This document shows, one piece after another, positions 11,426-23,240 of a DNA stretch of 52,306 nucleotides. The stretch comes from Psychrosphaera sp. B3R10 (lineage in GTDB: Bacteria > Pseudomonadota > Gammaproteobacteria > Enterobacterales > Alteromonadaceae). The position numbers and the translations under genes are program-made. The notes beneath the pieces were generated by a model. That model did no database searches, was not told the origin of the DNA, and saw nothing but the letters and a program-made list of their open reading frames with translations. The stretch covers positions 147,009 through 199,314 of the forward strand of contig NZ_JAHKQH010000024.1 of assembly GCF_018861025.1 (NCBI RefSeq), in the 5' to 3' direction. The first letter of the stretch is position 1; each line of letters opens with the position of its first letter.

Positions 11426-12577
11426 ATGCCCAGAACATTAGAAAGCACACAAAAAAAATTATTTGTATTAGACACCAACATTCTACTCCATGATCCACAC
11501 GCCTTTTTTAATTTTCAAGAACATGATGTTTTAGTGCCCATGACAGTTCTCGAAGAGCTAGACCATATCAAAGACCGAAATAAAGATGTTTCGCGGGATG
11601 CCCGAGTTGCCATTCGGTCGTTAGAAAATATCCTTCAAGATGTTACACCTGAACAGATGATTGAAGGGGTTCCACTAAATCGTAATGAACTCAAAGACAG
11701 TAGTGTCACGGGCCATCTGATTATTTTAAACGATCATGTAATTGCTACGGAGGTTTCGGGCTTACCTGGAGGGGTAAACGATAATAAAATAATTAATGCG
11801 GCGCTTCATCTCCAAAAAGAACGTTCAAATGTAACAGTTGTGCTAGTCACAAAAGACATTAACATGCGACTGAAAGCCAAAGGAGCGGGCTTAAAGTTTG
11901 TTGAAGATTATACAACAGACCAATTAATCGATGATGTAAACCTCTTAACTAAAGGATTTGAAGTTGTTGAAGGGGATTTTTGGCAACAAGTTGAAAATGT
12001 AGAAAGTGAAAAAGACGGTAGAGAAACGACTCATAAAGTAACGTTTAAAAAAACAATACCAACATTTATTAACGAATATATATTAGATGAAGGTGAAGAG
12101 TTTGCTGCGCGTGTAACAGGTCATTATGAAGATAAAGTGGAGTTGCTTGACTTAGGAAGGCAACGCTTATTATCTAGAAAAGCTTGGGGGATTACTCCGA
12201 AGAATATTTATCAGGGCATGGCGTTAAACGCATTAATGGACCCTAACATCGAATTGGTCATTTTAACTGGCCCAGCTGGGTGCGGGAAAACACTTTTAGC
12301 ATTAGCATCAGCATTGGAAATGGTTATTGAACTTGGCATTTATGACAAAGTATTGGTTACCAGAAATACGCCTGAAATAGCAGAGTCAATCGGTTTCCTA
12401 CCAGGTACAGAAGAGGAAAAAATGGCGCCATGGCTAGCCGCAATTACAGACTCCCTGGAAGTTCTCCACAAGAATGATGAAAACCCAAGCTCAAGTTTGA
12501 GTTACATAATGGAGAAAGCGAATGTGCAATTTAAATCTGTTAACTTTATGCGAGGGCGGAGCATTCAGAATGCAGTT
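11426..12577 (+). pseudogene. PIN-PhoH family ATPase, 5' part of a gene split by an island
   Basis: These 384 codons encode the N-terminal PIN-type nuclease domain (VLDTNILLHDP, then VLEELDHIKDR) and most of the PhoH ATPase domain with Walker A GPAGCGKT near residue 281. Similarity to PhoH proteins stops at RGRSIQNAVV, just where Walker B should follow. The missing continuation (VLLDECQN to the C-terminus) is at 22992-23240. The remaining open frame to 12793 adds about 72 unrelated residues from the island, so any product lacks Walker B and is probably inactive. ATG 11426 is preferred to an upstream GTG at 11420 because AAGGAAG is correctly spaced only for the ATG. Joined to the 3' part, the ancestral protein would be about 466 residues, the normal family length. 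PIN-PhoH proteins are thought to act in RNA metabolism; the substrate is unknown here. Confidence 0.9.
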
Positions 12578-12590
12578 GTAATATTACAAC
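12575..12590. repeat. 16-bp palindrome at the left island junction
   Basis: GTTGTAATATTACAAC is a perfect palindrome. Its first five bases are still host phoH sequence (codons for Val-Val) and the rest is foreign, so it spans the left breakpoint. It may be an attachment or resolution remnant, or chance. Confidence 0.55.
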
Positions 12591-12792
12591 CCCGAATTGA
12601 AAATAATTTAAAATTTTTACTCCTTTATTTTTACTGGCCTGTAGCAAAAGTAAAAAGAATTTCCCAAAATATGGATTCTAGTAACGACTTTAAGCATTTC
12701 CACAACAGCCAACCTTTACAGAGTAGTTGTTATTTGAGAGGTGAGTACAACACAAAGCCTAGCAACGATTCAATCTTATGGGAGGCTGCGTA

Positions 12793-14175
12793 ATGAAAAG
12801 CTCTATTGATAATCGAAATCCTCGTGTACTTGATACATCTGCATTGGTCCATGATCCTAAATCGCTTCTTTCCTATCGTGATGATGTATATATTTGTTTA
12901 ACCGTGTTGGAAGAATTGGACAATCTTAAAGAGAGAACTAATAAATCTGTAAGTGCAGATGCACGGATGTGTATAAGAATGTTGGAAGACATCATAAATG
13001 GACATACAGCCGAGGAAATGGAAATAGGTATTCCTTTACCATCTACCGAAACAGCCCAGAGAGGAAAGCTTTTCATTGGAATTGACACTCAATTGGATAT
13101 AACTAAGGAGTTAAAGCACGGGATAGGAAGTGATGCTGATAACAGAATAATTAATTATGCTTTATATCTTCAAAAAGAACTCAATAAAGACGTAACAATT
13201 GTTAGCCGTGATATTAATATGCGATTGAAAGCTCGAACAGTTGGGGTTAGGGCTGAGGACGTTGCCGAAGATAATCAAATATCAGATATTGATCTTTTAT
13301 ACACAGGGGTACAAGCCTTTAAAGGAGATCTTTTTGATCGAATTAAATCAGACAAAGACTTCAAGGTTTCAGGAGAAGTTTATACATTCCCAGTAAGTCT
13401 CTTTAATGATGAAGTTCAGCCCAACATGTATTGGTATGATGAGGCTGGACATATCGGGCGGATTTCAGAAGTAACTGATACTGAAGTTTACACAAAGTTA
13501 TTGCCGCGTAAGCATGAAAAAGTATGGGGCATTTTGCCTAAAAACCAGCGTCAAGCAATAGCGTTAAATCAACTAACAGACCCTTACAATGATTTAAATA
13601 TTATACTTGGCCCAGCAGGTTCTGGGAAAACTTTTTTAGCCGTTGCGGCAGCTTTACATCAAGTATTAGAGTTGAAAAAATATAAGAAAATAGTAGTTGT
13701 TAGGTCTCGGGACTTCATGGACGATGATCCCGGATTCCTTCCGGGTGATTTAACTGAGAAATCTATGCCTTTGCTTGCAGGTATTACGGATGCACTTATT
13801 TCGATGCACTCCAGTGATAATCATGAAGGAAATATTCACGCTACAGTTGAACATGTGATCGAAAGAGCTAATATAGAATTTACCAGTATGGCTTATTTTC
13901 GTGGCCGTTCAATAGACGATGCTGTTTTAATAATTGATGAAGCACAAAATATGACCCGTGCTCAAATTAAAGGAATGCTTAGTCGCGGTGGGAAAAATTG
14001 TCGGACAATCGTATTGGGCAACCTAGCCCAGATTGACGATAAGTTTGTAACACCGGCTTCTTCTGGTGCAAGTGCGGCTGTTAATGTGTATCGTCATTAT
14101 GAAAAAGGATCAGTGCTGATTTTTGATGAAGTAGAGCGTAGTAGCTTGGCTGAATTCACTGAAAAGAATATGTAG
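12793..14175 (+). CDS. PIN-PhoH family ATPase, island-borne paralogue
   Basis: A complete 460-residue protein of the same PIN plus PhoH architecture as the split host gene, but clearly diverged. It has VLDTSALVHDP and VLEELDNLKER in the PIN domain, Walker A GPAGSGKT in ILGPAGSGKTFLA, and Walker B IIDEAQNMT followed by VLGNLAQID. ATG 12793 has GGAGG seven bases upstream and overlaps the stop of the truncated host phoH frame (TAATG), which implies translational coupling and use of the host phoH promoter. It could replace the function of the disrupted gene. Related PIN-PhoH proteins act on RNA; no substrate can be named from sequence. A terminator follows at 14219-14244. Confidence 0.9.
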   Translation: MKSSIDNRNPRVLDTSALVHDPKSLLSYRDDVYICLTVLEELDNLKERTNKSVSADARMCIRMLEDIINGHTAEEMEIGIPLPSTETAQRGKLFIGIDTQLDITKELKHGIGSDADNRIINYALYLQKELNKDVTIVSRDINMRLKARTVGVRAEDVAEDNQISDIDLLYTGVQAFKGDLFDRIKSDKDFKVSGEVYTFPVSLFNDEVQPNMYWYDEAGHIGRISEVTDTEVYTKLLPRKHEKVWGILPKNQRQAIALNQLTDPYNDLNIILGPAGSGKTFLAVAAALHQVLELKKYKKIVVVRSRDFMDDDPGFLPGDLTEKSMPLLAGITDALISMHSSDNHEGNIHATVEHVIERANIEFTSMAYFRGRSIDDAVLIIDEAQNMTRAQIKGMLSRGGKNCRTIVLGNLAQIDDKFVTPASSGASAAVNVYRHYEKGSVLIFDEVERSSLAEFTEKNM

Positions 14176-14218
14176 GCATCAAACTACCATTCACATTTCC
14201 TTATAATATTGCAACAAT

Positions 14219-14244
14219 AGCCACTGCTTTTTGCAGTGGCTTTT
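14219..14244 (+). terminator. Rho-independent terminator after the island phoH paralogue
   Basis: AGCCACTGC and GCAGTGGCT form a 9-bp perfect stem around a five-T loop, followed by TTTC. It closes the phoH transcription unit 44 bases after the stop codon. Confidence 0.85.
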
Positions 14245-14369
14245 CAGAGAAGCCCGTTCCCACGAAAACAGGACGAAATGGATTTACTCTGAACTAAAAG
14301 ATTAAATATTCACATAAAAACTGAGTGACATAGGTGCGTGGCCTAGCGTTGCCGTTTTTTGGTGTATTG

Positions 14370-22429: not shown

Positions 22430-22476
22430 TATTTTTATTGGATACCTGGCTTTATGGCTCTGATTGAGTTTTTCGA

Positions 22477-22788
22477 TTAATTCGAATTGTTCAGTGAGTC
22501 CGACATCAACAGAGCCGTAGCCTTTTTTAGAATTTCCTTTTCTAATTCAATGCGTTCAATTTTCTTTTCAAGCTCTCTTATCCTAAGCTGCTCGGGAGTC
22601 ATGGGTGTTGCTTTAGGCGCTTTGCCTTGCCGTTCTTCTTTTAACTGTTTAACCCATTTACCAATCGTCGAATAACCCACATTCATGGCCTTAGCTGCTT
22701 CTTCATGGGTATAACCATGATCGAGTACCAATTGTGCCGTTTCTAATCTAAATTCTGGGCTGAAATTTTTACGTGACTTCTTAGCCAT
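22477..22788 (-). CDS. IS3-family transposase OrfA (DNA-binding part)
   Basis: About 103 residues with an N-terminal helix-turn-helix ([19 protein letters not shown] and [12 protein letters not shown]) and a C-terminal leucine-zipper helix ([19 protein letters not shown]). ATG 22788 has AGGTG correctly spaced; an in-frame GTG nine bases upstream is less likely. The slippery A6G lies in the leucine-zipper region, as is typical for this family. Confidence 0.92.
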
Positions 22789-22863
22789 TATCTTCACCTA
22801 ATACTGTTATGATTCAATCATAACATCCTCTAATTAGGTGGCCAAAATCACTATGCCACTACA

Positions 22864-22904
22864 GTTTTGATTATTTTAGATTTTGTTGTATTTCGTACTA
22901 TCAT
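22864..22904 (-). pseudogene. CzcC-like channel gene, 5' stub
   Basis: An ATG at 22904 with GAGGTG eight bases upstream opens a frame (MIVRNTTKSKIIK) that ends at the right end of the IS. Its basic, short N-terminus looks like the beginning of a signal peptide. It is in the position and orientation of the start of czcC. The assignment is by context, since 13 codons cannot be matched to a family. Confidence 0.5.
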
Positions 22905-22991
22905 GTTTATTCACCTCGGATTACAGCTTATTTGTAAAAGCTTTTTTATTCAAGCTTCTTTAGGGTATGATAGTATGATATCAGTTCGGGG

Positions 22992-23240
22992 GTGTTGTTA
23001 GACGAATGCCAAAATCTAACGGCTTCACAGTTGAAGACAATAATTACTCGTTGTGGTGAAGGGACCAAACTCGTCTGTTCTGGAAATTTGGCACAAATAG
23101 ATAGTAACTATTTAACCGCAGTTACGTCAGGTTTAACGTATATTGTTGAACGGTTTAAAAACTTTGAAGGCAGCGCAACTGTTAATTTGAACGGAGTTGT
23201 TAGAAGTCGACTAGCGCAATTTGCTGAAGAAAATTTATAG
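22992..23240 (+). pseudogene. PIN-PhoH family ATPase, 3' part of the split gene
   Basis: The frame begins VLLDECQNLTAS (Walker B and the following PhoH motif) and continues through CSGNLAQIDSNYLT to the PhoH C-terminus RSRLAQFAEENL. It lacks Walker A and the PIN domain, which are at 11426-12577. Joining codon 384 of the 5' part to GTG 22992 gives an uninterrupted NAVVLLDECQN, as expected for a PhoH protein. No ribosome-binding site precedes it. A terminator follows at 23278, as expected for the original gene end. Confidence 0.9.

What the first reader, a model, noticed from the sequence alone, without database searches (positions are those of the whole stretch)
11426..23240. A PIN-PhoH gene is split in two by a 10.4-kb island and can be rejoined exactly
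The frame at 11426 reads as PhoH through RGRSIQNAVV and then loses similarity. The missing Walker B and C-terminus appear at 22992-23240, beginning VLLDECQN. Joining 12577 to 22992 restores an uninterrupted PhoH of about 466 residues, with the old terminator behind it. The DNA between is a discrete insertion.
Basis: seen in the sequence. Interest (0 to 1): 0.8.

Follow-up and report, generated by a model that had tools for sequence, protein, structure and literature searches.

The report
Island splits phoH, supplies replacement copy
A mobile DNA island has cut a conserved bacterial gene (phoH) in two at its catalytic motif, and it carries a complete replacement phoH read straight on from the broken half; related islands do the same in many marine bacteria.

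Summary
Host PIN-PhoH is split at its Walker B codons: N part 11426-12580, C part 22995-23240. Five of eight same-genus genomes (own included) have it whole.

Among 295 family genomes, 31 carry this variant (71-100% identity); none of the 31 shows a whole host phoH. Insertions fall at several codons: Walker A, Walker B, a third motif. Two distinct tyrosine-recombinase-like modules occur in such islands; strong hits to either were seen only in variant carriers.

The window's junctions have inverted arms, 6-bp spacers and the donor/host spacer pattern described for strand-biased integrative elements (SEs; PMC10214605). Here the recombinases are gone and an IS3 sits at the break.

At several sites the host frame runs on through the island end for 54-75 codons and stops at TAATG, whose ATG starts the replacement gene. 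I read this as capture of host promoter and ribosomes. The variant is under strong purifying selection (median dN/dS 0.04). Takeover of function is inferred. One named exception: Ferrimonas marina.

The parts
11426..12580 (+). Host PIN-PhoH, N-terminal part (PIN domain, Walker A), truncated at the Walker B codons
   Evidence: Pfam PIN_4 and PhoH 2-125; 82-84% identical to intact same-genus genes
12581..12586 (+). Left 6-bp spacer ATATTA (Ile-Leu), differs from the same-genus Leu-Leu codons; read as the previous donor's footprint
12587..12602 (+). Island end arm C' (CAACCCCGAATTGAAA)
   Evidence: 13/16 match to the reverse complement of the right arm; 0 of 5000 shuffles reach it
12587..12793 (+). 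Open tail of 68 codons fused to the host stub, stop TAA 12791-12793
   Evidence: host frame open, other two frames 4 and 8 stops; P(open) 22/4000 shuffles
12780..12795 (+). GGGAGG ribosome-binding-like site and TAATG overlap of stub stop with variant start
12793..14175 (+). Complete variant PIN-PhoH (replacement copy); the ORF listing opens it at 12778
   Evidence: PIN_4 and PhoH 2-196; dN/dS
14334..16565 (+). Four orphan ORFs (132, 345, 76, 115 aa) behind the variant phoH in related islands
   Evidence: no Pfam or NCBIfam match at E<=0.001 for the stretches tested; clusters c5-c7 in 9 of 18 stretches, c14 in 7 of 18
16723..19923 (-). CusA/CzcA heavy-metal efflux pump (cargo)
   Evidence: TIGR00914 1038 bits
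19935..21224 (-). CusB/CzcB-type adaptor (cargo)
   Evidence: TIGR01730 above cut-off
21279..21583 (-). Outer-membrane efflux gene truncated by the IS
   Evidence: PF02321; full 405-aa homologue in G001
21584..22864 (-). IS3-family insertion sequence (two transposase ORFs, 27-bp terminal inverted repeats, 81%)
   Evidence: 96% copy on contig C7 of the same genome
22865..22904 (-). 5' remnant of intA (about 40 bp): all that is left of the recombinase operon
   Evidence: alignment of 22864-23239 to the right ends of G064, G184 and G287; start codon at 22904
22979..22994 (+). Island end arm C (intA side)
22995..23240 (+). Host 6-bp spacer TTGTTA (22995-23000) and C-terminal part of host PIN-PhoH
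   Evidence: PhoH positions 124-198; Leu-Leu codons as in 5 of 5 intact same-genus genes

Best explanation
[quoted passage not shown] It carries its own diverged phoH directly behind the intA-distal end. Insertion breaks the host gene but leaves its promoter and first 80% in place. The host frame runs on through the island end and stops at TAATG, so transcription and, at this site, translation pass from the stub to the replacement gene. The cell keeps one working phoH, now the element's, and the element cannot be lost without losing it. In this genome intA-tfp-intB-srap and much cargo are gone and an IS3 sits at the break, so the island looks immobile. Shown from sequence: the split, the replacement gene, junction anatomy, the reading-frame overlap, purifying selection, and the either/or pattern in relatives. 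Inferred: that the variant does the host PhoH's job, that coupling works in the cell, that SE-type chemistry made the insertion, and that the IS caused the deletion.
For: Split and empty sites. Variant at 71-100% in 31 of 295 family genomes, 16 of 52 genera. Of the 31, 0 shows a full-length host-type phoH, 28 have the host N stub within 1 kb before the variant, 28 have a listed C remnant (6 of these on another contig). Variant median dN/dS 0.041 in 175 usable pairs, no internal stop in 63 rows. Stub stop overlaps variant start in 19 of 47 loci scored (15 distinct contigs), within 2-3 nt in 3 more; nine distinct tails open only in the host frame. Arms and spacers: window right spacer Leu-Leu as in 5 of 5 same-genus genes, left Ile-Leu as in 10 of the 12 other genera parsed; G069 right Thr-Ala as in 4 of 4 same-genus genes, left Ser-Pro. 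This is the rule PMC10214605 gives for SEs. Module c13-c32-c31-c58/61 in 6 of 18 stretches has the SE order with R-HxxR-H-Y in genes 1 and 3 only. The window right end still aligns to such ends. L172: an element in host phoH and again in its own phoH.
Against: Ferrimonas marina has an intact host-type phoH and a variant (1 of 33 genomes searched; some of the 33 are the same assemblies as). 16 of 264 non-carriers show no or only a weak or partial PIN-PhoH, some in complete genomes, so the gene is not strictly essential (G213 and G226 hold pieces). At the commonest Walker A end type the stub stops 62-293 nt before the variant start, so tight coupling is absent there. Tails are only weakly constrained in amino acids (dN/dS 0.27-0.85). 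Neither recombinase module was found in 6 of 18 stretches, the window's among them. In G071 the four genes lie 24 kb from the phoH C remnant. SE proteins of the original papers were not compared directly. No expression or function data.
Confidence: 0.83

Rival explanations
1. phoH is only a safe landing site. The variant phoH is ordinary cargo that hitch-hikes; the host gene is dispensable and the either/or pattern is a by-product of the insertion site.
For: 16 of 264 non-carriers lack a clear PIN-PhoH; Ferrimonas marina holds both.
Against: The variant sits directly behind the junction at Walker A, Walker B and third-motif sites and with both recombinase modules; frame and start codon overlap at sites B and C and at one Walker A end type; dN/dS 0.04; G199, which has an intact phoH beside an island, has no variant.
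Confidence: 0.1
2. The stub stays useful: its intact PIN domain, made in step with the variant by coupling, works as a partner of the variant, so island and host form a two-gene system rather than a replacement.
For: N stubs listed for the carriers have no internal stop, and stop/start overlap favours matched synthesis. Stub dN is not clearly raised, but dS is saturated.
Against: Stub length differs by site (about 295, 393 or 432 residues); three Colwellia records (L166, L170, L171) show the variant within 0.7 kb of rapA with no stub found, Vibrio ruber only a short fragment.
Confidence: 0.06
3. An ancestral tandem pair of phoH genes was scrambled by rearrangement.
For: Two phoH genes lie close together.
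Against: 5 of 8 same-genus genomes have one intact gene and no variant; the window variant groups with Pseudoalteromonas islands, not with same-genus G001 or G007; recombinase-type junctions.
Confidence: 0.01

Closest known systems
[quoted passage not shown] PMC10214605, several sections and passages read)
   Same: Related islands have four genes in the intA-tfp-intB-srap order, full recombinase residues in the first and third only, imperfect inverted ends, 6-bp spacer, host spacer next to intA and foreign spacer at the other end
   Different: Target is phoH in the islands studied here, and a replacement target gene follows the intA-distal end; phoH has 0 hits in that paper's main text. The window copy has lost the four genes. 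Direct sequence kinship to published SE proteins not tested
Tn552-II of Staphylococcus with tgl, a target-gene-like gene (PMC12486829, passages read)
   Same: tnpABC element with brought-in att spacer carrying a homologue of its target gene; the authors suggest tgl may rescue the disrupted target
   Different: Gram-positive tnpABC system, plasmid and YolD-like targets; no frame fusion or many-site, many-genus pattern in the passages I read
GInts (PMC5385486, passages read)
   Same: Four-gene recombinase operon at one end, site-specific islands, unrelated members sharing one target gene (ssb)
   Different: In GInts ginA and ginB are the active pair and ginC the third gene, whereas here the second protein is the inactive one; no target-gene copy mentioned in the passages read, phoH 0 hits
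ICEs, IMEs and prophages that keep or rebuild the end of their target gene (IME review PMC5704250, passages read; SXT in prfC and e14 in icd recalled)
   Same: Insertion into a housekeeping gene with compensation by the element; the review also lists elements at internal sites that disrupt the target
   Different: They supply a gene end or leave the gene broken; no whole diverged replacement gene in the passages read

Membership tests
SE (strand-biased circularizing integrative element) | Operon intA-tfp-intB-srap at one border | tested here: not met
   Absent from the window island (only about 40 bp of intA 5' end). A four-gene set in that order is present in 6 of 18 stretches (G064, G155, G071, G184, G069, G287); intA starts 27-88 bp from the phoH C remnant in five of them, 24 kb away in G071
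SE (strand-biased circularizing integrative element) | RHRY residues in IntA and IntB, not in Tfp | tested here: met
   In relatives: invariant in c13 (7 rows) and c31 (6 rows), not seen among the invariant columns of c32 (6 rows)
SE (strand-biased circularizing integrative element) | 13-19 bp imperfect inverted ends around a 6-bp spacer | tested here: met
   Window 13/16 match; six islands 11-14 of 16, shuffles reach it 0-8 times in 5000
SE (strand-biased circularizing integrative element) | Spacer next to intA comes from the target, the other from the previous donor | tested here: met
   Window and G069 against intact same-genus genes. G287 and G184 uninformative (Ile-Leu on both sides). G155 fits, but no same-genus gene was compared. 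G071 set aside: its intA is not at that border
SE (strand-biased circularizing integrative element) | Sequence kinship to published SE proteins | tested here: inconclusive
   tblastn in plasmids found unnamed relatives, best about 30% identity; SE-6283 and SE-6945 proteins not compared
SE (strand-biased circularizing integrative element) | No empty site after circularization; strand bias | not testable with these tools
   needs PCR and read counts
GInt | Order ginA-ginB-ginC-ginD with the third protein inactive | tested here: not met
   Second protein is the one without RHRY in the relatives
Tn554 group | tnpA-tnpB-tnpC without a Tfp gene | tested here: not met
   c32 (about 930 aa) present in 6 of the 18 stretches, wherever c31 is
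PIN-PhoH | PIN domain plus full PhoH ATPase in one chain | tested here: met
   Variant PIN_4 and PhoH 2-196 of 205; the host gene has both but split
IS3 (21584-22864) | HTH ORF plus rve transposase ORF between inverted ends | tested here: met
   PF01527, PF00665 and 27-bp ends

The most novel reading that the evidence does not exclude
A class of integrative elements treats one conserved cellular gene as its obligatory landing pad by gene swapping. Distinct recombinase modules hit different catalytic codons of phoH, and each element supplies a whole phoH wired behind the broken one (at several sites by stop/start overlap), so the host stays alive and becomes dependent on the element. The swap repeats: the element's own phoH can be hit in turn (L172, L167), and after decay the foreign gene can be the only phoH left near rapA (some Colwellia, Vibrio ruber).
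Probability: 0.6. Interest if true: 0.85.

Novelty: new variant of a known kind. Interest (0 to 1): 0.74.

Why it matters
It shows how a mobile element can insert into the active site of a conserved gene and persist: it carries a working substitute and takes over the native promoter and reading frame. That turns insertion into gene replacement and gives a simple route to host dependence without a toxin. It also offers a sequence signature (target-gene stub, open tail, stop/start overlap, full homologue) with which other landing genes could be sought, and makes the question of how SE-type elements choose targets testable across many natural insertions.

Tried and rejected
Rearranged native tandem pair: rejected. 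Phage origin of the variant: no close relative in viral contigs; long matches 27-34%, one 40-residue piece 53%. Plasmid-borne variant: all 617 matching records below 60%, the 12 listed at most 39%. Stub decay by dN/dS: uninformative, dS mostly saturated. Kinship of the two recombinase modules by hhalign: nothing found, but profiles held few rows and even the two active recombinases of one module did not match each other, so inconclusive; I therefore call the modules distinct, not unrelated. Extension to other targets: the next IntA relatives in G028, G010 and G093 (34-36%) abut type I restriction genes; no clear split gene; G028 and G010 have a second hsdM-like gene farther in (32% and 42%); G010 and a fourth locus, G059 contig C3, run into contig ends; inconclusive. 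Rfam and tRNA scans of the window were empty. Type 2 module as a known family: weak VPA1267-family match to one gene and sub-threshold recombinase matches to another. Papers: phoH with integration site and tyrosine recombinase 0 papers; phoH, genomic island, insertion and tyrosine recombinase 0; phoH, genomic island and insertion site 4, judged from the listing only, none on such islands; rescue/target-gene terms 2: Tn552-II and an IME review, passages of both read. These searches cover open-access full text only.
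Full report
WHAT IS THERE. The frame from 11426 reads a PIN domain and the first 60% of the PhoH profile; 22992-23237 reads the rest. Intact genes from five of the eight same-genus genomes, own genome included, run through the join without a gap. The other two, G001 and G007, are also split, but at Walker A, with the C part about 32 and 45 kb away. So the split is real and recurs.

THE MISSED GENE. Behind the left junction lies a complete PIN-PhoH, 12793-14175, 41-43% identical to host-type protein. The same variant stands behind the N stub in G001 and G007. In 295 family genomes 31 carry it at 71-100% identity (the window's own copy is the 100%), in 16 of 52 genera; the next listed hits are at 44% or less, the host-type gene. 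None of the 31 shows a full-length host-type gene. In 28 of 31 the host N stub ends within 1 kb before the variant; G143 has a short fragment, G146 a stub 7 kb away, G237 none. A C remnant is listed for 28 of 31, not for G156, G143 and G237; in six (G145, G195, G225, G253, G261, G265) it is on another contig, so linkage is not shown there. Of 11 genomes with the 345-aa orphan cargo gene but no variant, the seven with the better hits were tested and all have an intact phoH.

SITES. By homology to an intact 472-residue PhoH the stubs end near residue 295-298 (Walker A), 393 (Walker B, as in the window), 432 (third motif) and a few others such as 336 and 421, and C parts begin near 294, 331, 389, 419 or 428, in some genomes in mixed pairs. 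Such mixing suggests repeated or recombined insertions in one gene.

RECOMBINASES. Of 18 stretches compared (17 split islands, G199 as a contrast), six hold one four-gene set, c13-c32-c31-c58/61 (G064, G155, G071, G184, G069, G287). In five of these intA starts 27-88 bp from the phoH C remnant; in G071 the set lies beside the variant, 24 kb from the remnant, so G071 may be composite. G059 has c13 alone, 77 bp from the remnant, and G137 a fragment. Four others (G047, G075, G110, G174) hold a different set with a RecD2-like helicase and recombinase-like proteins, and in six (window, G001, G007, G183, G260, G199) neither set was found. c13 and c31 have invariant R-HxxR-H-Y residues, c32 does not. 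Of 295 genomes, 41 match IntA at E<=0.001; the hits at 38% identity or more are in 13 (G137 as a fragment), all variant carriers. 12 match the 787-aa type 2 gene; the hits at 45% or more are in 8 (G195 a fragment), all variant carriers.

JUNCTIONS. In the window the ends are CAACCCCGAATTGAAA and, inverted, CACCCCCGAACTGATA, 13 of 16 alike (0 of 5000 shuffles), each next to a 6-bp spacer. The intA-side spacer TTGTTA reads Leu-Leu as in five of five intact same-genus genes; the other, ATATTA, reads Ile-Leu as in 10 of the 12 other genera parsed (three genes of the 38 given could not be parsed and were dropped). G069 repeats the pattern (Thr-Ala on the intA side as in 4 of 4 same-genus genes; Ser-Pro on the other). 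G287 and G184 have Ile-Leu on both sides and say nothing; G155 fits without a same-genus comparison; G071 is set aside. PMC10214605 (outline, Background part 1 of 2, one Results section, Discussion and passages read) gives this rule for SEs and says SEs leave no empty site, which would make a carried copy useful.

WHY THE WINDOW ISLAND IS SMALL. 16065-21584 is 98% identical to the G001 island, while host pieces on either side are 71-81% identical. At 21584 an IS3 interrupts the efflux gene. From 22864 on the DNA aligns with the right ends of G064, G184 and G287, keeping about 40 bp of intA. The recombinases were lost, most simply by IS-mediated deletion.

READING-FRAME CAPTURE. In 47 loci where stub and variant could be scored (some are the same contig twice), the host frame continues into the island end; in 19 (15 distinct contigs) its stop is the TAA of TAATG, whose ATG starts the variant; in 3 more the start is 2-3 nt away; in 25 it is 62 nt or farther, including the common Walker A end type. 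The overlap is seen at Walker B, at the third site and at one Walker A end type (G075); at the third site G071 lacks it (127 nt). Nine distinct tails of 54-75 codons (two of them end types with a gap of 2 nt) are open only in the host frame; dinucleotide shuffles are open in 3 to 171 of 4000. The nine are partly related, so their product is not a probability. Tails diverge in sequence (dN/dS 0.27-0.85) but keep an open frame and a GAGG...TAATGA end in 8 of 9 aligned ends, GAAG...TAATGA in the ninth. This fits translational coupling; it has not been measured.

FUNCTION OF THE VARIANT. 63 variant rows (including duplicates) have no internal stop; the Walker A string is exact in 63, the Walker B string in 59, the PIN string in 62; median dN/dS 0.041, at most 0.083, over the 175 pairs with usable dS. 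The quick tree puts the window variant with three Pseudoalteromonas-type site-B rows (support 99), and site labels A, A2, B, C and native change at least 10 times on it, other labels left out.

SERIAL EVENTS AND EXCEPTIONS. In L172 an element sits in host phoH and a second, with an identical tail, sits at the same codon of the first one's own phoH; in L167 a Walker A insertion has split a variant. These are draft or metagenome-derived records, so misassembly is possible. Three Colwellia records (L166, L170, L171) have the variant within 0.7 kb of rapA with no host stub found, two more (L157, L174) at 1.3-1.4 kb, and Vibrio ruber has only a short fragment between. G199 has an intact native phoH, an island without variant, and a C remnant at its far end 99% identical to the native gene, as if the native gene had been restored. 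Ferrimonas marina holds an intact host-type gene and a distant variant on another contig. 16 of 264 non-carriers lack a clear PIN-PhoH, so the gene is not essential in every lineage.

VERDICT. I file the element as an SE-like remnant, not as an SE, because the window copy lacks the core genes and direct kinship was not tested. The principle that such an element carries a homologue of its target has one printed precedent that I found (PMC12486829, passages read). The phoH system, its several sites, its two recombinase modules and the in-frame capture were not found in my searches.

Noticed in passing
14334-16565: Four orphan ORFs follow the variant phoH; three of them recur in 9 of 18 stretches. 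The 345-aa one matches in 27 of 295 genomes at E<=0.001, 11 of them without variant phoH. Function unknown.
   Followed up: partly
23813-23937: Four imperfect copies of a 33-base direct repeat (GGTGGGTGTCC...AAGTT) downstream of phoH.
   Followed up: no
16065-21584: Metal-efflux cargo 98% identical to the G001 island although the host pieces are 71-81% identical: recent transfer.
   Followed up: partly
L139 5731-16068: Second recombinase-like module with a RecD2-like helicase, large recombinase-like proteins and a weak VPA1267-family match; hits of 45% or more to its 787-aa gene are all in phoH-island carriers.
   Followed up: partly
L134-L136 (G199): Intact native phoH plus a 99% identical C-terminal remnant 54 kb away: looks like a natural restoration.
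   Followed up: partly
L172 2866-7392: Element inserted into host phoH and again into its own phoH at the same codon.
   Followed up: partly
L185: Ferrimonas marina: variant on a long branch, away from an intact host-type phoH; context not examined.
   Followed up: no
L165: Contig labelled as a Flavobacteriaceae MAG carries the Colwellia-type stub and variant; probably a mis-binned contig.
   Followed up: no
L121-L122 (G071): The four-gene recombinase set lies next to the variant phoH, 24 kb from the phoH C remnant: perhaps two elements merged.
   Followed up: no
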